A stretch of 64,000 bases of DNA from NCBI RefSeq assembly GCF_030285625.1, contig NZ_CP127294.1, positions 3,234,001 to 3,298,000 on the forward strand. The letters run 5' to 3'. This document shows positions 33,498 through 47,643 of the stretch, piece by piece; the first letter of the stretch is position 1, and each line of letters begins with the position of its first letter. The translations under genes and the position numbers were made by a program. The DNA is from Amycolatopsis sp. 2-15. GTDB lineage: Bacteria; Actinomycetota; Actinomycetes; Mycobacteriales; Pseudonocardiaceae. The notes under the pieces were generated by a model. That model worked only from the letters and a program-made list of their open reading frames with translations. It ran no database searches and was not told the DNA's origin.

Positions 33498-35051
33498 TCA
33501 GAGGAGCGGCGCCACCGCGGCGTCGATCAGGTGCGGCCCCGGCTCCGCCAGCGCCCGGCTGAACTGCTCGGCCAGCTCCTCCGCCGTGGTCGCGCGCGTG
33601 GCGGGCACGCCCATGCCCTCGGCCATCTTCGCGAAGTCCATGTCGGGCCGGCTGAGGTCGAGCAGCTCCTTGGCCTTCGGCCCGTCCGACGCCGCGCCGA
33701 CGCGCTGCAGCTCCATGCGCAGGATCGCGTAGGCGTGGTTGTTGAGGATGACCGTGGTGACGTCGAGGTTTTCGCGCGCCTGCGTCCACAGCGCGGAGAT
33801 CGTGTACATCGCGCTGCCGTCGGACTGGAGGTTGATCACCGGACGTGACGGCGCGGCGATCGCGGCACCCGTGGCCACCGGCATGCCGTAGCCGATCGCG
33901 CCGCCAGTCAGCGTCAGCACGTCGTGGCGCGGGGCGCCGGCCGTGGCGCCGGGCAGCAGCAGGCCGGACGTGTTGGCCTCGTCGGCGATGATGGCCTGCT
34001 CCGGCAGCAGCGCGCCGATCACCTCGACCCAGTTCTGCGCCGTCAGCGGTCCGCTCGGCAACGCCGGCCGCGAAGCCTCCTGCCGCACCGGCTCGACGTC
34101 GGCGGCGACGATCGCGGCGACGTCGCTCAGCGCGGTCGTCACGTCCTGCCCGACGTCGGCCAGCACGTGGACCTTCGCGCCCTCGGGCACGAGCACGCTC
34201 GGCTTGCCGGGGTAGGCGAAGAACGACACCGGCGCCCGCGTGCCGGCCACGATCAGGTGCTTCACACCTTCGAGCTGGTACATCGCCTGCTCCGACAGGT
34301 ACCCGAGCCGCTCGATGTTCGGCAGGCCCGCGCCGCGTTCGAGGCGTGTCGGGAAAGTCTCGATCAGCGCCTTCGCGCCCGTCGCGGCGGCGATGCGGCT
34401 GGTGGCCAGCAATCCGGCCTCGCGGCACGCGGGCCCACCGATGAGCAGCGCCACCGATTCACCGCTGCGCAGCACCTCGGCGATGTTCTTCACCGTCGTC
34501 GCGTCCACGGCGTGCGGCGTGCGCGGCGGGATCGGCGCGCACGTCTCGCCGCCTTCGCCCCACGACGCGTCGGCGGGCAGGATCAGCGTGGCCACCCGGC
34601 CCGGCGCGTCCTGCGAAGCCGCCACGGCCGCGGCCGCGTCAGCACCGACATCCTTCGTGTGCGAAGACCGGCGCACCCAGCCTTCGAGCGAACCCGCGAG
34701 CGCGTCGATGTCCGACTCGAGCGGCGCGTCGTACTGCTTGTGGTAGGTCGCGTGGTCGCCGACGACGTTGACCACCGGCGTGTGCGCGCGGCGCGCGTTG
34801 TGCAGGTTCGCCAGCCCGTTGCCGAGACCCGGGCCGAGGTGCAGCAGCGTGGCGGCGGGCTTCTCGGCGATGCGCGCGTAGCCGTCGGCCGCGCCGGTCA
34901 CCACGCCCTCGAACAGCCCGAGCACCCCGCGCATCTCCGGCACGGAGTCGAGCGCGGCGACGAAGTGCATCTCCGACGTGCCGGGGTTCGAGAAGCAGAC
35001 CTCCACCCCGGCGTCGACGAGGGTGCGGATCAGGGACTGGGCGCCGTTCAT
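33498..35051 (-). CDS. Thiamine-diphosphate enzyme resembling benzoylformate decarboxylase
   Basis: Protein of 517 residues from the ATG at 35051 (a GTG three codons upstream is possible). The activating Glu is in GLFEGVVTGAADGYARI and the ThDP/Mg loop is QSDGSAMYTISALW with NNHAYAIL. The motif LLHLGPGLGNGLANLHNA places a His where benzoylformate decarboxylase has its catalytic His and acetolactate synthase has none, so a 2-oxoacid decarboxylase is more likely than acetolactate synthase. There is no small subunit nearby. It starts 31 bases after a GlcD-like FAD oxidase; together they could oxidise a 2-hydroxyacid such as mandelate and decarboxylate the product. That pathway is inferred. Confidence 0.8.
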   Translation of the reverse strand: MNGAQSLIRTLVDAGVEVCFSNPGTSEMHFVAALDSVPEMRGVLGLFEGVVTGAADGYARIAEKPAATLLHLGPGLGNGLANLHNARRAHTPVVNVVGDHATYHKQYDAPLESDIDALAGSLEGWVRRSSHTKDVGADAAAAVAASQDAPGRVATLILPADASWGEGGETCAPIPPRTPHAVDATTVKNIAEVLRSGESVALLIGGPACREAGLLATSRIAAATGAKALIETFPTRLERGAGLPNIERLGYLSEQAMYQLEGVKHLIVAGTRAPVSFFAYPGKPSVLVPEGAKVHVLADVGQDVTTALSDVAAIVAADVEPVRQEASRPALPSGPLTAQNWVEVIGALLPEQAIIADEANTSGLLLPGATAGAPRHDVLTLTGGAIGYGMPVATGAAIAAPSRPVINLQSDGSAMYTISALWTQARENLDVTTVILNNHAYAILRMELQRVGAASDGPKAKELLDLSRPDMDFAKMAEGMGVPATRATTAEELAEQFSRALAEPGPHLIDAAVAPLL

Positions 35052-35081
35052 GCTGCTCACTTTCTGGGTCAGGCTCAGGGC

Positions 35082-36455
35082 TCAGGAGAAGAGGACACCG
35101 GGGTTGAGGATGCCGGCGGGATCGAAGCCCTGCTTGATCCGCCGCAGCAGCTCGAGCTTCGCCGGGTCTTCGAGTTCCTTGTGGTACTTGGTTTTCGTGC
35201 GGCCGAGGCCGTGCTCACCGGAGATCGCGCCGCCGAGGTCCATGGCGCAGGTGAAGATGTCGGTGAGCAGTTTCGTGCGCACTTCGGGGTCTTTGCAGAA
35301 GATCGCGAGGTGGACGTTGCCGTCGCCGGCGTGCCCGCAGCCGATCGCGCCGGCGCCCGCGGTCTGTGCGAGTTCGCGCGCCTTCGTGAGGAACGGCGAC
35401 ATCGACGAGCGGGGCACCACGACGTCGATCACGTCGTCGGCGCCCGCGGACTTGGCCGACCAGAACGCCTTTTCCCGTGCCTCGATGAGCTTGCGCGCGG
35501 AGCCGCCTTCGAGCACGTACACGTCGATCGCGCCGAGTTCGCTCAGCAGCTCACCGAGCGTCTCGACGTCTTCCTCGAGCCGGCCGGTGTCGCGGTTTTC
35601 CAGCGCCACCACCAGATACGCCTGCACCCTGTCGCGGATCGCGTCGGGGACACCGAGCTCGAGCTTCTCGTTGTAGACGAGCGCGGCCATGGTGAGGTTG
35701 TCGATGTACTCGAGGATGTGCGGCGCGAGGCCGCTGGTCACCACCTTCGGCACGGCGGCCATCACCTGGTCGAAGTCGTCGAACGGCGCGAGCACGGTGG
35801 CGCCGTGGGGCAGCCGCGGGTGCAGCTTCACCGTGACCTCGGTGGCGAGCGCGAGCGTGCCTTCCGAGCCGACGATCAGCTGCGTGAGGTCGTAGCCGGT
35901 GGAGATCTTCGACGTGCGCCCACCCGTGCGGATGATCTCGCCGGTGGGCAGCACGGCCTGCAGACCGAGGACGTTGCTGCGGGTCACGCCGTACTTGATC
36001 GCGCGCATCCCGCCCGCGTTGGTGCCGACGTTGCCGCCGACGCTCGCGCTCAGCTCCCCGGGGTAGACGGGGTAGGTCAGGCCGGCCTCGGCCGTGCGCT
36101 GGTCCAGCTCCGCCAGTGTGACGCCCGGCTGCACCACGGCGACGTGGTTCACGGTGTCGATTTCGAGGACGGAGTTCATCCGCTCGAACGACACGAGCAG
36201 GCCGCCCTCGACGGGTCGCGCGGCCGCGGAGAGCCCGGTGCCGGAGCCGCGTGCGGTCACGGGCAGGCCGGCTTCCGTCGCGGCCTTCAGCAGCTCCGCG
36301 ACTTCCTCGGCGCTGTGCGGCTTCGCGACGTACGCGGGCTTCTGCTGCTGCACGCTCAGCGCCTCGTCGTGGGCGTAGTCGTCGGAGATCGCGTCGCCGA
36401 CCAGCAGGTTTTCCGCCCCGACGATGTCCGCCAGCCGTGCCGCGACGGTACCCAT
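35082..36455 (-). CDS. FAD-linked 2-hydroxyacid oxidase/dehydrogenase (GlcD/D-lactate dehydrogenase family)
   Basis: Protein of 457 residues from the ATG at 36455 (GGGAG upstream); a GTG at 36473 would add six residues. The FAD-binding type 4 domain shows PVTARGSGTGLSAAARPVEGG, VQPGVTLAEL and GGNVGTNAGGMRAIKYG. The C-terminal domain ends CGHAGDGNVHLAIFCKD and GAISGEHGLGRTKTKYH, containing the catalytic and metal-binding His residues. D-lactate, glycolate, D-2-hydroxyglutarate or D-mandelate are possible substrates; the decarboxylase directly downstream favours an aromatic or branched 2-hydroxyacid. It is first in a two-gene operon. Confidence 0.88.
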   Translation of the reverse strand: MGTVAARLADIVGAENLLVGDAISDDYAHDEALSVQQQKPAYVAKPHSAEEVAELLKAATEAGLPVTARGSGTGLSAAARPVEGGLLVSFERMNSVLEIDTVNHVAVVQPGVTLAELDQRTAEAGLTYPVYPGELSASVGGNVGTNAGGMRAIKYGVTRSNVLGLQAVLPTGEIIRTGGRTSKISTGYDLTQLIVGSEGTLALATEVTVKLHPRLPHGATVLAPFDDFDQVMAAVPKVVTSGLAPHILEYIDNLTMAALVYNEKLELGVPDAIRDRVQAYLVVALENRDTGRLEEDVETLGELLSELGAIDVYVLEGGSARKLIEAREKAFWSAKSAGADDVIDVVVPRSSMSPFLTKARELAQTAGAGAIGCGHAGDGNVHLAIFCKDPEVRTKLLTDIFTCAMDLGGAISGEHGLGRTKTKYHKELEDPAKLELLRRIKQGFDPAGILNPGVLFS

Positions 36456-36625
36456 CAGCTGCCACTCCCTCACGCGCCGGTGCCTGGTTACCGAAGCGTA
36501 GTACGTCGTGTGGAGGGCTCGCTATGAAACTTCTTCACGTTCGCGGGGTGGGTGTCGCGAAGGGACCGTTCGCGCCCGCGCGGCGACCGGTGGCCTCGAT
36601 GTCGCCTTTCATTCACCCGGAAATG

Positions 36626-37702: not shown

Positions 37703-38203
37703 TTACTCGGCTCGCGCGTAGGTGAGCGTCTCGCCTTCGACGCCGCGCAGCCACAGGTCCTGCGCAGCCGCCGCCATCTCGGCCAGGCCTTCTTCGATCG
37801 TGGCGAACACGTTGCCCGGCACCCAGCCGGCGTCGCCGTTGATCAGGAGGTTGTTGCGCCCGTAGAAGATTGCGAGGTCCGTGGCGCCCTGGTCGCCGTG
37901 GGCTTCGCTGCCGTCGTCGTAGCCGTACGCGGGGTTGCCGATCTCCCACGCCTCGAACCCGAAGTACACGACGTCGCCCGGGATCGGCGTGATCGTCGGG
38001 TTTTCGCGGCCTGGCTTGGGGTTCGCGAAGGGCGGCACGAGCGTGTAGACCTCGTTGCGCGCGTACTTCGCGTGGTAGGCCGAGCCGCTCTGCGGCAGCG
38101 CGTCCCACACGGCCTGGCAGGTGCGCGGCGCCTCGGCGTCGAGCAGCCGCGCGCGGCAGGAGACGCCGCGTTTGTCGAGTGTGATCGTGATGTAGCGCGC
38201 CAT
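37703..38203 (-). CDS. DUF3830 protein (cyclophilin-like fold)
   Basis: Protein of 166 residues. It matches DUF3830: RCRARLLDAEAPRTCQAVWD-like start, LPQSGSAYHAKYARNEVYTLVP in the middle, and DVVYFGFEAWEIGNPAYGY later. The family has a cyclophilin-like barrel and unknown function; it is repeatedly found beside Asp/Glu racemase-like and hydroxyacid dehydrogenase genes, as here. It is the second gene of a minus-strand pair with the aminotransferase, 3 bases apart, under the operator at 39525. Confidence 0.85.
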   Translation of the reverse strand: MARYITITLDKRGVSCRARLLDAEAPRTCQAVWDALPQSGSAYHAKYARNEVYTLVPPFANPKPGRENPTITPIPGDVVYFGFEAWEIGNPAYGYDDGSEAHGDQGATDLAIFYGRNNLLINGDAGWVPGNVFATIEEGLAEMAAAAQDLWLRGVEGETLTYARAE

Positions 38204-38206
38204 TCC

Positions 38207-39466
38207 TCAGCTCCCCGCGGTGACGGAGGCGACCACGTCGCCCCAGATCTTCAGTGCGTCGTCGACCTGCTCGGCGTTCACGACGAGCGGCGGGACCATG
38301 CGGACCACGTTCGAGTAGGCGCCGCAGGGGAGCAGCAGCAGGCCGCTCTTCGACGCCAGCTGCTGGGCCGCCGCGGCCGTCGCCCCGTCCGGCTCGCCGT
38401 CGGCGGTGGTGAACTCGGTGCCCACGAGCAGGCCGAGGCCGCGGACGTCGCCGATCGCCGGAGTCTTGTCTGCGATCAGCCGCGCGCCTTCGAGCAGCTG
38501 ACGGCCGCGTTCGGCGGCGTTCTCCACCAGCTTCTCGTCGCGGATCACGTCGAGCGTCGCGATCGCCGCGGCGCACGACACCGCGTTGCCGCCGTACGTG
38601 CCGCCCTGCGAACCCGGGTACGCCTTCGCCATCAGCTCCTGCGAAGCCGCGATTCCCGAAAGGGGGAAGCCGCTCGCGAGGCCTTTCGCGATGAGCACGA
38701 CGTCGGGTGTGATGCCGAAGTGGTCGTGGCCCCAGAACTTGCCGGTGCGGCCGAACCCGGCCTGGATCTCGTCGACCACGAGCACGATGCCGTGGCGGTC
38801 GGCGCGCTCGCGCAGGCCGGCCATGAACTCGTTGTTTGCCGGCACGTAACCGCCCTCGCCCAGGATTGGCTCGACGAAGATCGCGGCCGTCTCGCTCGGC
38901 GCGGAGACGGTCTGGAACAGGTAGTCGAGCTCGCGCAGCGCGAACTTCGTGGCGGTCTGCTCGTCCCAGCCGTAGTGGAAGGCGTAGGGGAACGGGGCCA
39001 CGTGGACGCCGCCCATCAGCGGGCCGATGCCGGTGCTGAACCGGGTGCCCGACGTGGTCATGGTGGCCGCCGCGACCGTGCGGCCGTGGAAGCCGCCCTG
39101 GAACACGATCACGTTGGGGCGCTTGGTCGCCTGGCGCGCCAGGCGCAGCGCGGCTTCGACGGCTTCGCTGCCGGAGTTGGCGTAGAACAGCGAGTCGAGA
39201 CCGGTCGGCAGCACCTCGCCGAGGCGCTTCGTGAGCTCCAGCAACGGCTTGTGCATCACGGTCGTGTACTGCCCGTGGATCAGCTTGCCGATCTGGTCGC
39301 GCGCGGCCTCGACGACGCGCGGGTGGCAGTGGCCGGTACTGGTCACGCCGATTCCCGCGGTGAAGTCGAGGTGACGTTTCCCGTCGACGTCGTAGAGGTA
39401 CACCCCTTCACCGTGGTCGACCACGACGGGAGTTGCCTGCTTGAGCAGCGGGGAAAGCTCGGCCAT
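38207..39466 (-). CDS. Class III PLP-dependent aminotransferase (GabT-like)
   Basis: Enzyme of 419 residues from the ATG at 39466, with AGGAG before it. Conserved elements: YANSGSEAVEAALRLAR, the DEIQAGFGRTGKFW motif with the Asp that pairs with the pyridine nitrogen, and LIAKGLASGFPLSG with the PLP Lys. It resembles 4-aminobutyrate or other omega-aminotransferases. Divergent from the succinate-semialdehyde dehydrogenase gene, from which it is separated by the GntR operator at 39525-39538. The pairing suggests omega-amino acid to semialdehyde to acid, but the identity of the amine is unknown. Confidence 0.88.
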   Translation of the reverse strand: MAELSPLLKQATPVVVDHGEGVYLYDVDGKRHLDFTAGIGVTSTGHCHPRVVEAARDQIGKLIHGQYTTVMHKPLLELTKRLGEVLPTGLDSLFYANSGSEAVEAALRLARQATKRPNVIVFQGGFHGRTVAAATMTTSGTRFSTGIGPLMGGVHVAPFPYAFHYGWDEQTATKFALRELDYLFQTVSAPSETAAIFVEPILGEGGYVPANNEFMAGLRERADRHGIVLVVDEIQAGFGRTGKFWGHDHFGITPDVVLIAKGLASGFPLSGIAASQELMAKAYPGSQGGTYGGNAVSCAAAIATLDVIRDEKLVENAAERGRQLLEGARLIADKTPAIGDVRGLGLLVGTEFTTADGEPDGATAAAAQQLASKSGLLLLPCGAYSNVVRMVPPLVVNAEQVDDALKIWGDVVASVTAGS

Positions 39467-39524
39467 GCGGCGCTCCTGGTTCTTGGTGTGAGGTTGCGCG
39501 GGAAAGCACTGTGAGCGGTTGTCG

Positions 39525-39538
39525 ATTGTTGACAATAT
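39525..39538. promoter_or_regulatory. GntR/FCD operator, site 1
   Basis: GATTGTTGACAATA matches the consensus GATTGT-N2-ACAATC except at the last base. It lies between the divergent aminotransferase and semialdehyde dehydrogenase genes, 59 bases from one start and 41 from the other. Confidence 0.8.
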
Positions 39539-39578
39539 CCATAGCATGGCCTCGGGACAACACGGAGGAGCAAGCTGG

Positions 39579-41042
39579 ATGAGCGCGATCACTGAAGCCG
39601 GCGTCGTCGGCGCGGTCGACAAGGAACTCTTCATCGGCGGCAAGTGGGTGCCCGCGAAGAGCGGTAAGACCTTCGAGGTGCAGGACCCGTCCACCGGCAC
39701 CGCCCTGTGCGAGGTGGCCGACGCAGGCGCCGAGGACGGCATGGCGGCCCTCGACGCGGCCGTCGCGGCGCAGGCCGGCTGGGCCGCCGTCGCACCCCGT
39801 GAACGAGGCGAAATCCTTCGCCGGGCCTACGACAAGCTGATCGAGCGGCGCGACGAGCTCGCGCTGCTGATGACCCTCGAGATGGGCAAGCCGCTGGCCG
39901 AGGCCGCCGGCGAGATCACCTACGCCGCCGAGTTCTTCCGCTGGTTCGCCGAGGAGGCCGTGCGCATCGACGGCGGGTACGCGACGGCGCCCAACGGCGT
40001 CGGCCGCTTCCTGATCACCAAGCAGCCCGTGGGTCCGACGCTGCTGATCACACCGTGGAACTTCCCGATGGCGATGGGCACGCGCAAGATCGGCCCGGCC
40101 GTGGCCGCCGGCTGCACGATGGTGATCAAGCCGGCCGCGCAGACGCCGCTGTCGATGCTCGCGCTGGCGTCGATCCTGGCGGAGGCGGGGCTGCCCGAGG
40201 GGGTGCTGAACGTCGTCACGACCACCGACGCGGGTGGCGTGATGGAGCCGCTGATCCGGGACGGACGCGCGCGCAAGCTGTCGTTCACCGGGTCGACCGC
40301 GGTGGGGCGCAAGCTGCTGGAGCAGTGCGCGGAGAAGGTGCTGCGCACGTCGATGGAGCTGGGCGGCAACGCGCCGTTCCTCGTCTTCGACGACGCGGAC
40401 CTCGACGCTGCCGTCGATGGCGCGATGCAGGCGAAGATGCGCAACATCGGCGAGGCGTGCACGGCGGCCAACCGCTTCTACGTGCAGCGCGGCGTGGCCG
40501 AGGAGTTCTCGCGGCGGCTGACCGAGCGCATGCAGGCGCTGGCGATGGGCCGCGGCACGGAGGAGGGCGTGGTCGTCGGCCCGCTCATCGACGAAGCCGC
40601 CGTGAACAAGGTGACCGCACTGGTCAAGGACGCCACCGACCGCGGGGCGCGGGTGCTCACCGGCGGCGCGACCGTCGACGGGCCCGGCCACTTCTACCAG
40701 GCCACGGTGCTCACGGACGTGCCGGTCGACGCGCGGATGGCGTCGGAGGAGATTTTCGGGCCGGTCGCGCCGATCACCCCGTTCGACAGCGAGGACGAGG
40801 CGATCGCGAAGGCCAACGACACGGAGTACGGCCTGGTGTCGTACGTGTTCACCAACGACGTGAAGCGCGCGCTGCGCGTGTCCGAGCGGCTCGAGGCCGG
40901 GATGATCGGGCTGAACCAGGGCATCGTGTCGAACCCGGCGGCGCCGTTCGGCGGCATCAAGCAGTCGGGCCTCGGGCGTGAGGGCGGCACGGTCGGCATC
41001 GAGGAGTTCCTCGAGACCAAGTACATCGCGGTGAGCCTGTGA
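39579..41042 (+). CDS. gabD: Succinate-semialdehyde dehydrogenase-like aldehyde dehydrogenase
   Basis: Enzyme of 487 residues from the ATG at 39579, which has GGAGGAG before it; an upstream GTG overlapping the operator is unlikely. The NAD(P) motif FTGSTAVGRKLLEQC, catalytic Glu in SMELGGNAPFLVFDDAD and nucleophilic Cys in NIGEACTAANRFYV are intact. PVGPTLLITPWNFPMAM is typical of the SSADH/GabD branch. It oxidises the semialdehyde expected from the aminotransferase. It overlaps the next gene by 4 bases. Confidence 0.88.
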   Translation: MSAITEAGVVGAVDKELFIGGKWVPAKSGKTFEVQDPSTGTALCEVADAGAEDGMAALDAAVAAQAGWAAVAPRERGEILRRAYDKLIERRDELALLMTLEMGKPLAEAAGEITYAAEFFRWFAEEAVRIDGGYATAPNGVGRFLITKQPVGPTLLITPWNFPMAMGTRKIGPAVAAGCTMVIKPAAQTPLSMLALASILAEAGLPEGVLNVVTTTDAGGVMEPLIRDGRARKLSFTGSTAVGRKLLEQCAEKVLRTSMELGGNAPFLVFDDADLDAAVDGAMQAKMRNIGEACTAANRFYVQRGVAEEFSRRLTERMQALAMGRGTEEGVVVGPLIDEAAVNKVTALVKDATDRGARVLTGGATVDGPGHFYQATVLTDVPVDARMASEEIFGPVAPITPFDSEDEAIAKANDTEYGLVSYVFTNDVKRALRVSERLEAGMIGLNQGIVSNPAAPFGGIKQSGLGREGGTVGIEEFLETKYIAVSL

Positions 41043-42097
41043 GCGAGTACCGCATCGCGAGCATCCCGGGCGACGGGATCGGTGTCGACGTCACGGTCGA
41101 GGCGCGCAAGGTCCTGGACGCGGCCGCTGCTCGGCATGGCTTTTCCTTGCGGTGGACCGAGTTCGACTGGAGCTGCGAGCGCTACACCCAGACCGGCTCG
41201 ATGATGCCGGACGACGGTGTGGCGCAGCTGGCGGCGTTCGACGGCATCCTGCTGGGTGCCGTCGGGTTCCCCGGCGTGCCGGACCACATTTCCTTGTGGG
41301 GCTTGCTGATCCCGCTGCGGCGCGCGTTCCAGCAGTACGTGAACCTGCGACCGGTGCGGTTGCTGCCGGGCACCACGTCGGTGCTTTCGGGGCGGACGGC
41401 CGAAGAGCTGGAGATGGTGATCGTCCGCGAGAACTCCGAGGGTGAGTACTCGGCGATCGGCGGACGGCACAACTCCGGGCGGCCGGACGAGTTCGTGCTG
41501 CAGGAATCCGTGTTCACGCGCGTCGGGGTGGAGCGGATCATCCGGTACGCGTTCGAGCTGGCGCGTACGCGTACTTCTCGCGTGACGTCGGCGACGAAGT
41601 CCAACGGGCTGATCCACTCGATGCCGTTCTGGGACGAGATCTTCGCCGAGGTCGCGGCGAAGTACCCGGATGTCGAAAGTGGACAGATGCACGTGGATGC
41701 GTTGGCAGCGCGCATGGTTCAGGCGCCCGACCGGCTCGACGTGGTCGTCGGGTCGAACCTGTTCGGCGACATCCTGAGCGACCTGGCGGCCGCCGTCACG
41801 GGTGGCCTGGGCATGGCACCGTCCGGAAACATCAACCCATCGGGTGAGTTTCCGTCGATGTTCGAAGCGGTCCACGGGAGTGCTCCGGACATCGCCGGCC
41901 AGGGCATCGCCAACCCGGTGGCCCAGATCCTGGCGGGCGCGATGCTGCTCGAACACCTGGGCGAAACCGTTGCCGCGCAAGCGATCCGCACGTCCGTCGA
42001 CGAGGTGCTCACGGCCGGCGCCGAGCTCACCCCCGACCTCGGCGGCACCGCTACCACAACTCGCCTCGGCACGGCGGTGGCCGAAGCGCTCCGCTGA
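41039..42097 (+). CDS. Tartrate/D-malate-type beta-decarboxylating dehydrogenase
   Basis: Enzyme of 352 residues starting at a GTG that overlaps the gabD stop. It belongs to the isocitrate/isopropylmalate dehydrogenase family: [11 protein letters not shown] at the start, [13 protein letters not shown], the metal-binding run [17 protein letters not shown], and [19 protein letters not shown]. The subfamily features ([26 protein letters not shown]) are those of tartrate dehydrogenase and D-malate dehydrogenase (TtuC/DmlA). It oxidatively decarboxylates a 2-hydroxy-dicarboxylate. D-malate is attractive because maleate/fumarate-type chemistry is suggested by the nearby isomerase paralogues (inferred). 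Confidence 0.88.
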
Positions 42098-42181
42098 TTT
42101 TTCGTCGGTGCTCCCCGCTTCACTTCTCCTCGACCGACCGGCTCCCGCCGGACCGGTTTCGTCGAACGAGGGGGAGCACCG

Positions 42182-42661
42182 ATGTGCGAGCAGTGCGAGG
42201 GCCGCGACAACACAGGAAGACCCGGGGAGCGTTACCTGGCGGAGATCCTGGACCGGGTCCAGGAGTACGGCTGGTGCGTCCAGGGCGTGCTGGGCACGGG
42301 TCCCCGGCCGCCCTGGGCCTATACCGTCGGCCTAACGGCCCACGGGTTGCCGGAGCTCGTGGTCACCGGCCTGCCGCCGCACGCGTCCATCCTGCTGCTG
42401 GGCGCCGCCGCCGAACGCTCCTTCGGCTCCGGCCCACCGCGCCCCGGCGAGGTCTTTTCCTTGCGGGGCTTGCCTTCTGTCGAGGTCGTCGCCCTCACCG
42501 CACCGTCGGCGCACCTGTCGGTCGCGGTTTCCCTGTACGGCCACGACATTCGCGCGCTCCAGCTCGTCCACGCCGACGAGGCCGGCCGCTTCCCGTGGTC
42601 CCCGTCCTACCGCGACGGCCTCGGCGGCCAGCCGGTGCTGGGGACGCGGTCCGATGACTGA
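42182..42661 (+). CDS. DUF4262 protein
   Basis: Protein of 159 residues. It begins with CEQCEG and carries the DUF4262 signature: [30 protein letters not shown] start and [12 protein letters not shown]. The family is widespread in actinomycetes and of unknown function. It lies 84 bases after the dehydrogenase, with no operator, so membership of the catabolic regulon is not established. Confidence 0.8.
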
Positions 42662-42947
42662 GCGAGTGCGGCAGCGTCTTCGCGAGCGGTCGTCCTGCGC
42701 GGCAAACGAATCCGGCCGCGGCACCTGGCGCCCGCGGATCACGGGCGCTCCCGCTGTCGTCAGGGCCGCGATGCTCAGCCTCTCCGGCGGCTGCGGGCCG
42801 ATGGGTCGGCGGGTGTGGCGCCGTCTTGGCCGCGGAAGGTCGGGTGCGGCCGGTCGCCAATCGCGGTTTCTCGGTGCGGCGGCGAGCGAATCCGGGCATG
42901 GCGGCTCCCGCTCGCCCGCGAGCCGAGCTGCCGTATGCGGCGCACGG

Positions 42948-43643
42948 TCACGCGGGAGCCGGCGCTTCGCCTTCCTTCAGGCTCGTCCCTGGCACCAGCC
43001 GGCCGATCGCATCTTCCATGTGCGCGTCCAGCAGGTGCAGGGCCGCGTCCGCGTCGCCGGTGCGCAGGGCGTCGATGATGCGCGTGTGTTCGTCCACGCG
43101 GTCTTCCACGCCCTGGTAGGTGCTTTGCAGCAGGGTCAGGCACATGCGCGTCTCGATGAGGAGGGTGCGGGCCATGCGCACGAGGCGTTTGCTGCCGGAG
43201 GCGTTGATGAGGGCCTCGTGGAAGGCGAGGTCGGCGGCCGACAGCGCGGTGGGGTCGTCGTCGTTCGCGGCGGCGGCCATGTCGGCCACGGACTGCTCCA
43301 GCGAGGCCGCGATCTGCTCGCGGTCGCCGCGCAGGGCGCACAGCAGGGCGGCGCGCTCGACGGCCGAGCGGGCGAGGTAGATGTCGAACACGTCGCTCGG
43401 TTCGAGGTCGATCACGAACAGGCCGCGGTGGCGCTCGCTGCGGAGCAGTCCTTCGGAGACGAGGTGCTGCATCGCCTCCCGCAGCGGGCCGCGCGAGACC
43501 TGGAAGCGGGAGGCGAGGTCGGTCTCGCCGAGCTGGGTGCCGGGAGGCAGCGCGCCGGTCATGATCGCGTCGCGCAGCTGGCGGGCGATCACGGCGGCGG
43601 TCGACTCCCGGCTGACGGGTTCGATGTCGGGCAGGACGACCAC
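42948..43643 (-). CDS. GntR-family regulator with FCD domain
   Basis: Regulator of 231 residues. The winged helix (VIARQLRDAIMTGALPPGTQ, LGETDLASRFQVSRGPLREAMQHLVSEGLL) spans about 15-75; the FCD all-helical ligand domain follows, with DLAFHEALINASGS and a terminal DEHTRIIDALRTGDADAALHL that contribute metal-binding His and Asp. Three copies of GATTGT-N2-ACAATC in this cluster fit FadR/VanR-type operators, and it is the only GntR gene in the cluster. It is the last gene of the unit starting at 44381, so it is autoregulated. Ligand probably a carboxylate or pathway intermediate (inferred). Confidence 0.87.
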   Translation of the reverse strand: MVVLPDIEPVSRESTAAVIARQLRDAIMTGALPPGTQLGETDLASRFQVSRGPLREAMQHLVSEGLLRSERHRGLFVIDLEPSDVFDIYLARSAVERAALLCALRGDREQIAASLEQSVADMAAAANDDDPTALSAADLAFHEALINASGSKRLVRMARTLLIETRMCLTLLQSTYQGVEDRVDEHTRIIDALRTGDADAALHLLDAHMEDAIGRLVPGTSLKEGEAPAPA

Positions 43644-43646
43644 GGC

Positions 43647-44381
43647 TCAGCTCCTCACCCGGAACAGCGCGCCCAGCGAACGCACCAGGCGCGTGGTGCC
43701 GGTGAGCCGCAGGCCTTCCCAGATCGTCACCTGGTTCGCGGTGAGCACGGGCTTGCCCAGCGCGGTCTCGATGGCGTTGATCTCGCCGAGCGTGCGCATC
43801 GCGGTGTCCGGCACGAGCACGGCGTCGGCCTCGGGGTGGTTGTTCTCCGCGGCCAGGCGCACCACGGCTTCGGGCTCCAAGCGGCCGACCTCGGCGGCGG
43901 TGTCGATGCCCGCGCTCGCCATCGTGAGCACCTCGACGCCGCCGACGGCGAGGAAGTCCACGAACAGGCGCGCCACGTCGTCGGGGTAGCTCGCGGCCAC
44001 CGCGACCCGCTTCACGCCGAGGGCCTGCGCTGCGTGCACGAAGGCGAAGGACGTGCTCGATGCCGGGACCCCGGCCACCGCGGCGAGGCGGTCGGCCTGG
44101 TCGCGCGCCCCGTCCCAGCCGTACACGAAGCTGCCGGACGTGCAGGCCCAGATCACCGCGTCGGGCTCGTGCTTGGCGAGCAGCGTGGCGCCGTCGGCGA
44201 GGCGGGCCTCGCTGCCGAGGTCGAGCAGCTCGGGCACGGCGTGCAGGTCGGTGCCGTAGATGTGCTCGACCGGCAGCCGGATGTCGCCTTCGTCGGCGTC
44301 CGACCCGCCGAGCAGCTGCTCGGCGAGCGGGTAGTCGTCCTCGGCCGCGTGGTCGGGGTAGATGAAGCCGATCGTGGTCAC
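43647..44381 (-). CDS. Asp/Glu racemase/maleate isomerase-fold protein with one catalytic Cys missing
   Basis: Protein of 244 residues. It begins TTIGFIYPDHAAEDDYPLAE, typical of the maleate cis-trans isomerase/arylmalonate decarboxylase group. The first active-site Cys is present (VIWACTSGSFVYG), but at the second site, where two-Cys members have C-T, it reads VLVPDTAMRTL: Asp replaces Cys. Arylmalonate decarboxylase keeps only the second Cys; this is the reverse pattern. It may catalyse decarboxylation or a lyase reaction rather than racemisation. It lies behind a perfect 16-bp operator and precedes the regulator by 3 bases. Confidence 0.82.
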   Translation of the reverse strand: MTTIGFIYPDHAAEDDYPLAEQLLGGSDADEGDIRLPVEHIYGTDLHAVPELLDLGSEARLADGATLLAKHEPDAVIWACTSGSFVYGWDGARDQADRLAAVAGVPASSTSFAFVHAAQALGVKRVAVAASYPDDVARLFVDFLAVGGVEVLTMASAGIDTAAEVGRLEPEAVVRLAAENNHPEADAVLVPDTAMRTLGEINAIETALGKPVLTANQVTIWEGLRLTGTTRLVRSLGALFRVRS

Positions 44382-44399
44382 GAAACCTCCGGGATGAGC

Positions 44400-44415
44400 A
44401 GATTGTCGACAATCT
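44400..44415. promoter_or_regulatory. GntR/FCD operator, site 2
   Basis: AGATTGTCGACAATCT is a perfect 16-bp palindrome 19 bases before the start of the one-Cys isomerase gene, controlling that gene and the regulator. Confidence 0.88.
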
Positions 44416-44427
44416 TAGACAGGCGCG

Positions 44428-45168
44428 TCAAGAGACCTCCCGCAGCCACTTGCCGGGGCCGACGATCGGCAGGTTCATGCGGCGCAGGCACGCCCACATG
44501 GTCAGCTGGTTGGCCGTGAGCACGGGTTTGCCCAGCGCGGCCTCGAGGGGCTCGATCAAGTCGAAGGTAGGGAGGTTGGTGCAGCTGACGAAGATCGCTT
44601 CGGCGTCGCTGTGATCGGCGGCGAGGATGCGCTCGGCGATGGTGCGGTAGCTGACCTTCCAGATGCCGCCGCCCAGGCCGAGGTGGTCGCTGGACACCGT
44701 GGTCACGCCGAGCTCGGCGAGGAAGTCGTGGAGCTTGCCGGTGAGGTCGGCGTCGTAGGGGGTGAGCACCGAGATCCGGTGCAGGTCGAGCTGCTGCAGC
44801 ACCTCGGCCAGCGCCCCCGAGGTCGTCACCGCGTCGAGCGCGCCCGCGTCGCAGATCGCCTTGGTGAGGGAGCGCTCGTAGTCGATGCCGTTGACGAAGC
44901 TGCCCGACGTGCAGAGGTAGGCGACCACCTCGGGCTCGACGTGCAGCACGTCGCGCGTCGCCGCCGCGAGGTGGCGGCTGTCGCTCACGAGCTGCGCCAT
45001 CTCCATGCTCACGGGCACGGGTTCGTACGGCGTGCGGGCGAGATGGAGGGAGACCTCCATGGGTACCCACCGCCAGAGTTCGCGTTCGAGGGCAAGGTCG
45101 AACGGCGCGATCACGCCGATGCCGCGCTGTGCGAGCGGGCCCTCGAACGCGAGGAAATCCAGATCCAA
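44428..45168 (-). CDS. Asp/Glu racemase/maleate isomerase-family enzyme with both catalytic Cys
   Basis: Protein of 246 residues, paralogous to the protein encoded at 43647. Both catalytic Cys are kept: VAYLCTSGSFVNG and IFVSCTNLPTFD. The C-terminal LEAALGKPVLTANQLTMWACL is shared with its paralogue. Two-Cys members include maleate isomerases, aspartate racemases and hydantoin racemases; this gene is expected to be the redox-sensitive cis-trans or racemising partner. It is a separate unit behind the third operator and ends just before operator 2. Confidence 0.85.
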   Translation of the reverse strand: MDLDFLAFEGPLAQRGIGVIAPFDLALERELWRWVPMEVSLHLARTPYEPVPVSMEMAQLVSDSRHLAAATRDVLHVEPEVVAYLCTSGSFVNGIDYERSLTKAICDAGALDAVTTSGALAEVLQQLDLHRISVLTPYDADLTGKLHDFLAELGVTTVSSDHLGLGGGIWKVSYRTIAERILAADHSDAEAIFVSCTNLPTFDLIEPLEAALGKPVLTANQLTMWACLRRMNLPIVGPGKWLREVS

Positions 45169-45231
45169 GGCTCAGCCTCCGGAATACGCCTGTGCAGATG
45201 ACACGTCCGGTGCTCCGGGGGTCGTTCCTCG

Positions 45232-45245
45232 GATTGTTGACAATC
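45232..45245. promoter_or_regulatory. GntR/FCD operator, site 3
   Basis: GATTGTTGACAATC, a 14-bp dyad with perfect 6-bp arms, lies between the divergent two-Cys isomerase and hydroxyacid dehydrogenase genes, 63 and 26 bases from their starts. Confidence 0.85.
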
Positions 45246-45271
45246 ATACGAGCCACTTTTACGGTGTCAAT

Positions 45272-46264
45272 GTGATCGCCTCGGAATTTCCCGTACTGGC
45301 GGTGCTGTGCGGGTCGGCTCCACCACCGGACATGGCCGCTATCGAAGAGGCGGCGGTGGTTCGTTACACCGACGCGCGAGGACTACCCGAAGCGCTTACC
45401 GGAGCCCAGGGGCTGTTCGTCTACGATTTCCTCTCCACGGCCGTGCCCGGCGCGTGGCACGCGGCCGGCGACCTGCGCTGGCTGCACATCGCGAGCGCGG
45501 GCGTCGACCCGGTGCTGTTCCCCGGGTTGGTCGAGAGCGACGTCGTGCTCACTAACTCGCGGGGCGTCTTCGACGACGCCATCGCCGAGTACGTGCTGTG
45601 CGTGGTCCTGGCCTTCGCCAAGGACTTCGCGCGATCGCTCGACCTGCAGCGCGCCGGCACGTGGCAGCACCGCGAGACCGAACGCGTCGCCGGGCGCGAG
45701 GTGCTCGTGGTCGGGACCGGGCCCATCGGCCGCTCGATCGCGCGGCTGCTGCGCGCGGCCGGCCTGCGCGTGTCCGGGGCCGGACGGCGCCCGCGCACGG
45801 GCGACCCCGACTTCGGCACGTTGCACGACTCCGCGCAGCTCACGGAGCACTTGCCGGCCTTCGACTACGTCGTGGCCGTCGCGCCGCTGACCGAGCAGAC
45901 GAAGGGCATGTTCGACGCGGCGGCGTTCGCGGCGATGAAGCCGTCGGCGCGGTTCGTGAACGTCGGGCGCGGCGAGCTGGTGGTCACGTCGGACCTGGTG
46001 GCGGCGTTGCGCGGAGGTGAGATTGCGGGCGCGGCCCTCGATGTGTTCGACACCGAGCCGCTGCCGGGCGACAGTCCACTCTGGACAATGCCGGACGTGC
46101 TGCTGTCGCCGCACATGTCGGGGGACTTCGCGGGCTGGCGCAACACTCTGGTAGAGGTCTTCGCGGCGAACTTCCGCCGCTGGGTGGCCGGGGAGCCGTT
46201 GCACAACGTCGTGGACAAACGGCTCGGATACGTGCCGTCGGAATCGCAGGGAGCAGCCGGATGA
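45272..46264 (+). CDS. D-2-hydroxyacid dehydrogenase
   Basis: Enzyme of 330 residues from the GTG at 45272; the frame continues upstream across the operator, so the longer form is not credible. The NAD motif is VLVVGTGPIGRSIARLLRAAG. The catalytic Arg (NVGRGELV), Glu (DVFDTEPLP) and His (LLSPHMSG) of the family are all present. It would interconvert a 2-oxoacid and a D-2-hydroxyacid. It overlaps the amidase by 4 bases, so the two are translationally coupled under operator 3. Confidence 0.87.
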   Translation: MIASEFPVLAVLCGSAPPPDMAAIEEAAVVRYTDARGLPEALTGAQGLFVYDFLSTAVPGAWHAAGDLRWLHIASAGVDPVLFPGLVESDVVLTNSRGVFDDAIAEYVLCVVLAFAKDFARSLDLQRAGTWQHRETERVAGREVLVVGTGPIGRSIARLLRAAGLRVSGAGRRPRTGDPDFGTLHDSAQLTEHLPAFDYVVAVAPLTEQTKGMFDAAAFAAMKPSARFVNVGRGELVVTSDLVAALRGGEIAGAALDVFDTEPLPGDSPLWTMPDVLLSPHMSGDFAGWRNTLVEVFAANFRRWVAGEPLHNVVDKRLGYVPSESQGAAG

Positions 46265-47643
46265 GCCACCGGGAACTGACCGCAAGCGAACTGGTCGCCG
46301 CCTACGCCACCGGGGAGCTTTCGCCGGTGGAGGCGACCGAGGACGCGCTGCAGGCCATCGAGGAACGCGACGGCGATCTCAACGCCTTCTGCCTCGTCGA
46401 CGCCGACCGCGCGCTGGAACAGGCGAAGGCCGCCGAGATCCGCTGGCGCGACGGCAACCCGATCGGCTGGCTCGACGGGGTGCCCGCGTCGATCAAGGAC
46501 ATGTTCCTCACCGCAGGCTGGCCCACCCGGCGCGGCTCCACGAGCATCCCGGCCGAGGGGTCGTGGGACGTCGACAGCCCCGTGATGGCGCGGATGCGCG
46601 AGGCCGGCCTGGTGGTGCTGGGCAAAACGACCACGCCTGAGATCGCGTGGAAGGGCGTGACCGACAGCGCGCTCGCCGGCATCACGCGCAACCCCGTCGA
46701 CCCGTCGAAGACCGCCGGCGGCTCCAGCGGTGGCAGCGCGGCGGCCGTCGCGGCGGACATGGGCGCGATCTCCGTGGGTACCGACGGCGGTGGTTCGGTG
46801 CGGATCCCCGCGTCGTTCTGCGGGATCGTCGGGCTGAAGCCGACCCACGGGCGGATCCCGTTGTTCCCGGCGAGCCCGTTCGGCCCGCTGTCGCACGCCG
46901 GCCCGATGGCGCGCAGCGTCGACGACACCGCGCTGCTGCTCGACGTGATCGCCACGTCCGACCCGCGTGACCCGGCCGCGCTCGCGCCGCCGGTCAGCAC
47001 CTACCGCGAGGCCGTGCGGCGTGACGTGCGCGGACTCATCGCGGCGTTCTCGCCGACGCTCGGCTACGTGGACGTGGACCCGGAGGTAGCGGCGATCGTC
47101 GCGGCGGCCGTGAAGGCGCTCGACGACGCGGGGCTGCAGATCGAGGAGGTGGACCCGGGGTTCGAGGACCCGAAGCCGTCGTTCGACGTGCTCTGGTCCA
47201 CCGGCGCGGCGAAGATGCTCGACGGGTTCCCGCCGGGCAGCGAGGACCGCGTCGACCCCGGGCTGCGCCGCGTTTGGGAGCAGGGCAAGACCTACAGCGC
47301 GAGCGACTACCTCGACGCCACCGCCGCCCGCGCGGCGCTCGGCATCCTGATGGGCGAGTTCCACACGCGCTACGACGTGCTGATCACCCCGACCATCCCG
47401 ATCCCGCCGTTCGAGGCCGGGCACGACGTGCCGCCGGGCAGCGGGCTGAGCGAGTGGCCGGAGTGGACGCCGTTCACCTACCCGTTCAACATGACGCAGC
47501 AGCCGGCGATCAGCGTCCCGGCCGGACGGACGTCGGCCGGATTGCCGGTGGGGCTGCAGATCGTGGGTCCGCGGCACTCCGACGACCTCGTGCTGGCCGT
47601 CGCGAAGCTGCTCGAAGAGGTGCGGCCCTGGGTGGTGCGCTGA
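46261..47643 (+). CDS. Amidase-signature family hydrolase
   Basis: Enzyme of 460 residues. The amidase signature is complete: Lys in VPASIKDMF, the glycine-rich GGSSGGSAAAVAADMGA with the cis-Ser, and the nucleophile Ser in GTDGGGSVRIPASFCG. It hydrolyses amides to carboxylates; in this context it is the probable entry enzyme supplying an acid to the isomerases and dehydrogenases. The N-terminal SELVAAYATGELSPVEATED is the usual lead. It is the last gene of the plus-strand operon. Confidence 0.88.
   Translation: MSHRELTASELVAAYATGELSPVEATEDALQAIEERDGDLNAFCLVDADRALEQAKAAEIRWRDGNPIGWLDGVPASIKDMFLTAGWPTRRGSTSIPAEGSWDVDSPVMARMREAGLVVLGKTTTPEIAWKGVTDSALAGITRNPVDPSKTAGGSSGGSAAAVAADMGAISVGTDGGGSVRIPASFCGIVGLKPTHGRIPLFPASPFGPLSHAGPMARSVDDTALLLDVIATSDPRDPAALAPPVSTYREAVRRDVRGLIAAFSPTLGYVDVDPEVAAIVAAAVKALDDAGLQIEEVDPGFEDPKPSFDVLWSTGAAKMLDGFPPGSEDRVDPGLRRVWEQGKTYSASDYLDATAARAALGILMGEFHTRYDVLITPTIPIPPFEAGHDVPPGSGLSEWPEWTPFTYPFNMTQQPAISVPAGRTSAGLPVGLQIVGPRHSDDLVLAVAKLLEEVRPWVVR

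What the first reader, a model, noticed from the sequence alone, without database searches (positions are those of the whole stretch)
37703..47643. A GntR/FCD regulon with three matching operators defines an unassigned catabolic system
GATTGT-N2-ACAATC occurs at 39525, 44400 and 45232, and nowhere else that I can see. Between them the three sites control ten genes: DUF3830 protein, aminotransferase, semialdehyde dehydrogenase, tartrate/D-malate-type dehydrogenase, two isomerase-like paralogues, D-hydroxyacid dehydrogenase, amidase and the regulator itself (DUF4262 less surely). The order suggests: amide hydrolysed, acid isomerised or decarboxylated, then oxidised. No transporter is present. 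Known families do not add up to a described pathway; maleamate/maleate/D-malate or imide catabolism is the closest fit.
Basis: partly seen in the sequence, partly recalled or inferred. Interest (0 to 1): 0.8.

Follow-up and report, generated by a model that had tools for sequence, protein, structure and literature searches.

The report
Actinobacterial ectoine-type solute breakdown regulon
Actinobacteria related to Amycolatopsis carry a conserved set of nine or ten genes under one predicted repressor and three near-identical DNA switches; it probably lets them feed on a salt-protection molecule such as ectoine by a route that lacks two key enzymes of the known pathway, and this can be tested directly.

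Summary
The operators are real: 44401-44414 and 45232-45245 match exactly, 39524-39537 with one mismatch. In 80 named relatives they persist at 79 of 79, 52 of 52 and 51 of 55 testable gene junctions; in 15 cluster-bearing genomes 28 of 31 exact sites lie in or directly beside the cluster. The regulon claim stands; the pathway guess (maleamate, maleate, imide) does not. Relatives supply the missing transporter: in a Streptomyces-like genome, genes above NCBIfam cut-offs for all four Ehu (ectoine) subunits adjoin the cluster; in an Arthrobacter-like genome EhuABCD stands among the orthologues under the same operator; Rubrobacter-like loci add BCCT or ProP-like genes. Both isomerase-like proteins match ectoine protein EutA best, but below its cut-off. 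Best reading: an ectoine/5-hydroxyectoine-type catabolic regulon. The window's genome has ectoine synthase and a complete EhuABCD, distant and without operator, but no EutE match and no EutD above cut-off. Substrate and every enzyme step are inferred. Confidence 0.6.

The parts
39524..39537 (.). Operator 1 (GATTGTTGACAATA, 1 mismatch) between the divergent aminotransferase and aldehyde dehydrogenase genes
   Evidence: a site with 2 or fewer mismatches at this junction in 79 of 79 named loci with both genes
44401..44414 (.). Operator 2 (exact), about 20 bp upstream of amd1-gntR
   Evidence: 51 of 55 named loci with amd1 and amd2
45232..45245 (.). Operator 3 (exact) between divergent amd2 and hadh-amidase
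   Evidence: 52 of 52 named loci with both genes, 51 of them exact
37703..38203 (-). DUF3830 protein, cyclophilin-like fold; candidate ring-opening enzyme (inferred)
38207..39466 (-). amt: class III aminotransferase, candidate diaminobutyrate gamma-transaminase (inferred)
   Evidence: PF00202 394 bits; 30-34% identical to aminotransferases of three ectoine-type loci
39579..41042 (+). aldh: SSADH-like aldehyde dehydrogenase, candidate aspartate-semialdehyde oxidiser (inferred)
   Evidence: PF00171; 46% identical to the SSADH of the Rhizobium johnstonii eut cluster
41039..42097 (+). ttc: tartrate/D-malate-type decarboxylating dehydrogenase, accessory
   Evidence: TIGR02089 512.8 bits, cut-off 470.4; in 63 of 80 named loci
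42182..42661 (+). DUF4262 protein, probable passenger
   Evidence: PF14081; in 29 of 80 named loci
42948..43643 (-). gntR: FCD-type GntR regulator, presumed repressor
   Evidence: PF00392 and PF07729
43647..44381 (-). amd1: EutA-like protein, second conserved cysteine replaced by Asp
   Evidence: Asp in 93 of 93 scored orthologues
44428..45168 (-). amd2: EutA-like protein with the cysteine pair
   Evidence: first Cys 81 of 83, second Cys 83 of 83 scored orthologues
45272..46264 (+). hadh: D-2-hydroxyacid dehydrogenase
   Evidence: PF02826; 45% identical homologue 3.4 kb from doeA in Mesorhizobium sp. AR02. Start read from the sequence
46261..47643 (+). amidase (amidase-signature family), candidate deacetylase in place of EutE (inferred)
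   Evidence: NF004815 766.9 bits, cut-off 506

Best explanation
This is an actinobacterial regulon for breaking down an ectoine-type compatible solute, most likely ectoine or 5-hydroxyectoine. The FCD-GntR protein binds three near-identical operators and represses amt-DUF3830, aldh-ttc, amd1-gntR itself, amd2 and hadh-amidase until a pathway intermediate releases it. Shown here: the genes, their families, the operators and their conservation, Ehu-type and other solute transporters joined to the cluster by adjacency or by the same operator in relatives, and, in this genome, a complete EhuABCD elsewhere, no EutE match and no EutD above cut-off. Inferred: (1) binding and repression; (2) import by the distant Ehu or another transporter; (3) the EutA-like pair amd2/amd1 with hadh handles the hydroxylated form; (4) the ring is opened without EutD, perhaps by DUF3830, and the acetyl group removed by the amidase instead of EutE; (5) amt turns the freed diaminobutyrate into aspartate semialdehyde and aldh oxidises it to aspartate, with ttc taking a hydroxylated (malate-like) product where present.
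For: Operators: three sites against 0.02 expected; junctions 79/79, 52/52, 51/55, with 9 other sites in 1.54 Mb and 7, 7 and 2 hits for three control patterns; 28 of 31 exact sites of 15 cluster-bearing genomes in or beside the cluster. Transporters: EhuB, C, D, A all above cut-off beside the cluster in Streptomyces-like L162 and in Arthrobacter-like L185, there with boxes in front of ehuB, amd1/gntR, amd2/RidA, the ProP-like gene and the amidase (0-2 mismatches); EhuA and EhuD within 3 kb of DUF3830 in L168, EhuB and EhuA within 10 kb in L169; an amd2 homologue (45%) divergent from an EhuB gene with a 1-mismatch box in L213; a BCCT gene divergent from a Glu-dehydrogenase-like gene with an exact box between them in L165. 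EhuB above cut-off in 12 of 19 sampled genomes with long-form DUF3830 against 20 of 377 without it (Fisher p 3e-10, kinship not corrected). EutD-like proteins (below cut-off) in L157 and L164. EutA is the best NCBIfam model for amd1 and amd2. hadh homologue near doeA. Sinorhizobium locus with EhuBCDA, aldehyde dehydrogenase, DABA-type transaminase and amd homologue, no doeA annotated in the stretch. EctC and EhuABCD all above cut-off in this genome.
Against: No enzyme of the cluster passes a curated model for a specific ectoine enzyme; amd1 and amd2 are far below the EutA cut-off. The window genome's own ehu genes lie about 130 kb from the cluster without a box, and one presumed cage residue of that EhuB is Asn (cage recalled). 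Ehu names may cover other substrates: in Bradyrhizobium guangxiense an Ehu-annotated transporter with an amd homologue (36%) precedes 5-oxoprolinase-type genes, with no doeA annotated. L161-L163 lack amt and aldh within about 10 kb of DUF3830. An Arthrobacter plasmid (L217) has amt, aldh, ttc, hadh, a GntR gene and three one-mismatch boxes with a solute-binding protein only 26% identical to EhuB of L185, and no hit to the EutA-like proteins, amidase or DUF3830 in 30 kb, so part of the set may serve another substrate. L166 has a GntR homologue but no site with 2 or fewer mismatches. The ProP-like proteins are below their cut-offs. Short DUF3830 proteins sit in purine clusters, so the family is not ectoine-specific.
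Confidence: 0.6

Rival explanations
1. The regulon breaks down another N-containing solute (for example an N-acylated or hydroxylated gamma-amino acid such as 4-amino-3-hydroxybutyrate or its amide) imported by an Ehu-like amino-acid transporter: the amidase frees the amino acid, amt and aldh make malate, ttc decarboxylates it.
For: amt, aldh and ttc fit this chemistry by family. L217 links amt, aldh, ttc and hadh to a different solute-binding protein under the same motif. Ehu-annotated genes also stand beside 5-oxoprolinase-type genes in Bradyrhizobium.
Against: ttc is absent from 17 of 80 named loci, 13 of them not cut before its place, and among L157-L170 was hit only in L160. All four Ehu subunits pass the ectoine cut-offs in two distant genera. 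It does not explain two EutA-like proteins or the EutD-like proteins in relatives.
Confidence: 0.25
2. One reading: maleamate, maleate, D-malate or imide catabolism.
For: amd1 and amd2 belong to the protein group of maleate isomerase; the top solved structure for amd2 by sequence is a putative maleate isomerase, 60 bits against 57.7 for arylmalonate decarboxylase. A D-malate-type dehydrogenase is present.
Against: EutA outscores the only other NCBIfam model matched by the paralogues, and no maleate isomerase model was matched. ttc is dispensable. Cluster-linked transporters in relatives are of amino-acid/compatible-solute type.
Confidence: 0.08
3. The three sites are ordinary FCD-GntR boxes shared by several regulators, so they do not define one regulon.
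For: The same box occurs beside another GntR gene in this genome and in a PrpF/MFS/amidohydrolase-type set in G194.
Against: 28 of 31 exact sites in 15 cluster-bearing genomes lie in or beside the cluster. The three positions stay fixed across the named loci. The boxes are missing in the three loci that hold the cluster without a GntR hit.
Confidence: 0.05

Closest known systems
Proteobacterial ectoine/5-hydroxyectoine catabolic cluster (ehuABCD or uehABC, eutABCDE, atf/doeD, ssd/doeC, enuR, asnC); reviewed in PMC5924519 (abstract and passages seen); example Rhizobium johnstonii pRL12, L194
   Same: EutA-type protein, class III aminotransferase, SSADH-like dehydrogenase; Ehu transporter linked in relatives. 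The review's Figure 6 legend names a hydroxyacid dehydrogenase gene (hdhD) of undefined role in some known clusters.
   Different: No EutD above cut-off and no EutE match in this genome. Two EutA-like paralogues, an amidase-signature enzyme, DUF3830 and an FCD-GntR instead of MocR-type EnuR. No EutB- or EutC-type domain among the ten proteins.
EutD-based putative Gram-positive ectoine clusters, PMC13188858 (2026; abstract, section 8 and other passages seen; figures and supplements not)
   Same: Candidate ectoine breakdown in Actinomycetota; MFS, BCCT, UehPQM or EhuABCD transporters; eutE absent in the Bacillaceae described.
   Different: Found by EutD and EutB homology, which would miss a cluster without EutD. 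The words duf, gntr, amidase, streptomyces and arthrobacter do not occur in its main text.
Arylmalonate decarboxylase / maleate isomerase / EutA protein group
   Same: amd1 and amd2 match PF17645; amd2 keeps the two-cysteine pattern, as does EutA of L194.
   Different: amd1 has Asp for the second Cys in 93 of 93 scored orthologues, and Ser for the first in 3 of 93.
3KOP, uncharacterised Arthrobacter protein with cyclophilin-like fold, and the Pictet-Spenglerases McbB/KslB
   Same: 3KOP is 62-67% identical over the fold match; the next fold matches are enzymes of cyclic imine chemistry (chemistry recalled).
   Different: 17-20% identity to McbB/KslB; a shared fold shows no function.

Membership tests
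Canonical ectoine catabolic (Eut/Doe) system | Ectoine hydrolase EutD/DoeA | tested here: not met
   Own genome best 67 bits against cut-off 613. EutD-like proteins below cut-off in L157 (416 bits) and L164 (174 bits).
Canonical ectoine catabolic (Eut/Doe) system | N-acetyl-diaminobutyrate deacetylase EutE/DoeB | tested here: not met
   No match at E 0.001 in own genome.
Canonical ectoine catabolic (Eut/Doe) system | EutA | tested here: inconclusive
   Best NCBIfam model for both paralogues, 118 and 105 bits, cut-off 318.
Canonical ectoine catabolic (Eut/Doe) system | EutB dehydratase and EutC in the cluster | tested here: not met
   No such domain among the ten proteins; the rest of the genome was not searched for them.
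Canonical ectoine catabolic (Eut/Doe) system | Diaminobutyrate transaminase and SSADH-like dehydrogenase | tested here: inconclusive
   Families present; 30-34% and 46% identity to those of ectoine-type loci.
Canonical ectoine catabolic (Eut/Doe) system | Ectoine transporter (Ehu) linked to the cluster | tested here: inconclusive
   Met in L162, L185, L168, L169, L213; in the window's genome EhuABCD is complete but about 130 kb away without operator.
Canonical ectoine catabolic (Eut/Doe) system | MocR-type regulator EnuR | tested here: not met
   The cluster's regulator is GntR with FCD domain.
Canonical ectoine catabolic (Eut/Doe) system | Induction by and growth on ectoines | not testable with these tools
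   Needs cultures.
FCD-GntR operator regulon | Conserved palindrome in the promoters of the gene set | tested here: met
FCD-GntR operator regulon | Binding of the regulator to the sites | not testable with these tools
   EMSA needed.
Maleamate/maleate pathway | Maleate isomerase identified as such | tested here: inconclusive
   No NCBIfam maleate isomerase match; maleate isomerase and arylmalonate decarboxylase structures nearly tied for amd2.

The most novel reading that the evidence does not exclude
A second, EutD- and EutE-independent route for ectoine or hydroxyectoine breakdown in Actinomycetota, in which a DUF3830 protein (cyclophilin-like, resembling the Pictet-Spenglerase fold) opens the cyclic amidine, an amidase-signature enzyme removes the acetyl group, and a paired EutA-like complex (amd2 catalytic, amd1 a degenerate partner) processes the hydroxylated form.
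Probability: 0.25. Interest if true: 0.75.

Novelty: new variant of a known kind. Interest (0 to 1): 0.62.

Why it matters
Actinobacteria are prominent among ectoine makers (PMC5924519, passage). The same 2018 review states that ectoine consumers were restricted to Proteobacteria (passage), and the 2026 paper calls its Gram-positive clusters unexpected and in need of proof (PMC13188858, passages). Both surveys, as described in the passages seen, start from EutD. The window's genome has no EutD above cut-off, so such surveys would miss this cluster. It gives DUF3830, which had no hit in the open full-text library for 2016-2026, a concrete hypothesis, and it comes with a predicted operator, so one induction experiment can test the whole reading.

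Tried and rejected
Rejected: (a) 'motif unique to this regulon': other sets in this and related genomes carry the same box. (b) FAD oxidase (35082-36473) and TPP enzyme (33498-35060) as regulon members: they follow DUF3830 on the same strand within 3 and 6 kb in 46 and 58 of 75 named loci with room, but in the window an opposite-strand HxlR-type gene lies between and the nearest box is operator 1; left out. (c) DUF4262 as a pathway member: variable. (d) The set at the third exact genome site (C1:7983753) as a fourth transcription unit: no functional link seen. (e) DUF3830 as a general marker of ectoine genes: the short form sits in purine clusters.

Led nowhere: the plasmid search for DUF3830 gave one 33% hit in a record without annotation. 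The Haladaptatus amd homologue lies beside hydantoinase/oxoprolinase-type genes. The bare L192/L217 record has no annotation and was read by similarity only. Paper searches failed or timed out; searches bounded by years at both ends worked. Not used: the search for homologous proteins, the second structure job, the viral fold library.

Print claims rest only over the open library and on passages (plus one whole section) of PMC5924519, PMC13188858, PMC7192451, PMC5884947, PMC5719810 and PMC8317367; subscription papers, figures and supplements were not seen. The EhuB ligand-cage residues, the chemistry of Pictet-Spenglerases and the pathway roles given to families are recalled, not from a call on function. 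Genus labels '-like' for G-handle genomes are my guesses from kinship codes and sequence.
Full report
The window lies in a 10.05 Mb single-contig genome whose closest named relatives in this region are Amycolatopsis records.

Operators. With up to one mismatch the window holds exactly three sites against 0.02 expected in shuffles. Two are exact; the one at 39524-39537 has a final A for C. They lie between divergent amt and aldh, about 20 bp upstream of amd1-gntR, and between divergent amd2 and hadh-amidase. The genome has three exact sites, the third at C1:7983753 in front of unrelated-looking genes, and none of the reversed control pattern.

Conservation. I fetched 80 named loci by DUF3830 similarity (258 relatives were found and the best 80 kept) and 20 from unnamed family genomes. 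In the 80 named loci a site with two or fewer mismatches is present at the amt/aldh junction in 79 of 79 (6 exact, 71 with one, 2 with two mismatches), at amd2/hadh in 52 of 52 (51 exact), and at amd1/amd2 in 51 of 55 (24 exact). Only 9 other such sites occur in 1.54 Mb, four of them next to cluster genes of cut or rearranged loci. Three permuted control patterns gave 7, 7 and 2 hits. The loci are close relatives, not 80 independent cases. A further test used 15 genomes, chosen as cluster carriers, from 13 genera: 31 exact sites, of which 28 lie in the cluster or, at the edge of the fetched stretches, within about 1 kb of its genes; the reversed control pattern occurs once. In more distant actinobacteria boxes persist with the orthologous genes (L060, L063-L066, L157-L160, L165, L167-L170; two 2-mismatch sites in L164). 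They are absent from L161-L163, which hold the cluster without a GntR hit, and from L166, which does have a GntR homologue.

Gene content. 49 of 80 named loci hold all eight core genes (DUF3830, amt, aldh, gntR, amd1, amd2, hadh, amidase) in the fetched stretch. The others hold 2 to 7; I did not establish whether the missing genes lie beyond the stretch or elsewhere. ttc is in 63 of 80 and DUF4262 in 29 of 80. In the most distant loci (L158-L170) amd1, amd2, amidase and DUF3830 recur most steadily, with hadh not hit in L169, L168 being a 5 kb contig, and amt and aldh not hit in L161-L163.

The missing transporter. In L162 (same unnamed genus as L161 and L163; I take it for Streptomyces) DUF3830 stands back to back with four genes that pass the curated cut-offs for EhuB, EhuC, EhuD and EhuA. 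L185 comes from a genome I take for Arthrobacter because its DUF3830 is near-identical to the Arthrobacter protein 3KOP. L185 holds part of aldh, the amidase, a ProP-like transporter (below its cut-off), gntR, amd1, amd2, a RidA-like protein and EhuABCD, all four above cut-off, with boxes at 843, 4222, 5215, 6936 and 10652 (0 to 2 mismatches). About 90 kb away on the same contig, L157 holds hadh, an EutD-like protein (416 bits, cut-off 613), an M20 peptidase, DUF3830 and amt, with four boxes. L168 has EhuA and EhuD, L169 EhuB and EhuA, and L213 an amd2 homologue divergent from an EhuB gene with a box between. Rubrobacter-like loci (my label) carry BCCT genes (L165, L166) or a ProP-like gene and an EutD-like protein below cut-off (L164); the exact box of L165 lies between its BCCT gene and a Glu-dehydrogenase-like gene. 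In 396 sampled phylum genomes 19 have the long DUF3830 (my division of the list, 187 bits or more) and 32 have EhuB above cut-off; 12 overlap. Fisher p is 3e-10, not corrected for kinship.

Links to known ectoine loci. A canonical cluster in Rhizobium johnstonii holds ehuABCD, eutABC, doeA, doeB, an aminotransferase and an SSADH; its SSADH is 46% identical to aldh and its EutA 31% and 37% to amd1 and amd2. In Mesorhizobium sp. AR02 a 45% homologue of hadh lies 3.4 kb from doeA and 8.5 kb from ectB. In Sinorhizobium sp. CCBAU 05631 ehuBCDA stands with an aldehyde dehydrogenase, a transaminase and a 39-40% amd homologue, with no doeA annotated in the stretch. Against this, in Bradyrhizobium guangxiense Ehu-annotated genes and an amd homologue precede 5-oxoprolinase-type genes. 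The 2018 review lists hdhD as a gene of undefined role in some known clusters (PMC5924519); whether it is the same family as hadh was not tested.

The window's genome has EctC and EhuB, C, D, A all above cut-off, about 130 kb from the cluster and without a box. It has no EutE match and no EutD above cut-off. At three positions that I recall as the aromatic ectoine cage of 2Q88, all six EhuB proteins aligned from cluster-linked loci (L161, L162, L163, L169, L185, L213) are aromatic, whereas the two unlinked ones (window genome and L186) have Asn and Ser at the third.

Against. No specific ectoine enzyme model is passed in the window. L161-L163 lack amt and aldh nearby. L217, an Arthrobacter plasmid, joins amt, aldh, ttc, hadh and three one-mismatch boxes to a solute-binding protein only 26% identical to EhuB of L185. 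The ectoine reading is therefore held at 0.6, with another amino-acid-like solute as the main rival.

Literature. The 2018 review says consumers are restricted to Proteobacteria. A 2020 paper mentions a doeBDAC cluster in Tsukamurella (Actinobacteria) (passage). A 2026 paper reports EutD-based putative clusters in Actinomycetota. None of the passages seen describes a cluster without EutD, with DUF3830 and amidase, under an FCD-GntR.

Noticed in passing
L171, L172, L173, L175, L176 (short-form DUF3830, about 140 aa): The short DUF3830 form sits in purine/ureide breakdown clusters: HIUase and M20 hydrolase in L173 and a glyoxylate-carboligase-like TPP enzyme in L176 by HMM; allantoinase-, urate-oxidase- and hydroxypyruvate-isomerase-like genes by eye. 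It is a candidate for a missing ureidoglycolate-type step.
   Followed up: partly
window 33498-35060 and 35082-36473: A TPP enzyme and a GlcD-like FAD oxidase follow DUF3830 on the same strand in 58 and 46 of 75 named loci with room; in some relatives a different FAD enzyme takes the oxidase's place.
   Followed up: partly
L174 9334-10812: Three tandem DUF3830 genes (three matches in one stretch) beside a polyamine-type ABC transporter and an isochorismatase-like gene, the latter two by eye.
   Followed up: no
L012 4879 (C1:6908378) and L011 4254 (C1:7983753): The same box stands next to another GntR gene with PrpF- and MFS-like neighbours and before an amidohydrolase/dicarboxylate-transporter set (gene names by eye), so the box is partly generic to FCD-GntR proteins.
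   Followed up: partly
L217 12542-26364 (Arthrobacter sp. StoSoilB13 plasmid): amt, aldh, ttc, hadh, a GntR gene and an ABC transporter with three one-mismatch boxes but no hit to the EutA-like proteins, amidase or DUF3830: a sister regulon, possibly for another solute.
   Followed up: partly
L190 (Sinorhizobium sp. CCBAU 05631 plasmid): An ehuBCDA locus with transaminase, aldehyde dehydrogenase, amidohydrolase and amd homologue but no doeA annotated in the 20 kb stretch.
   Followed up: no
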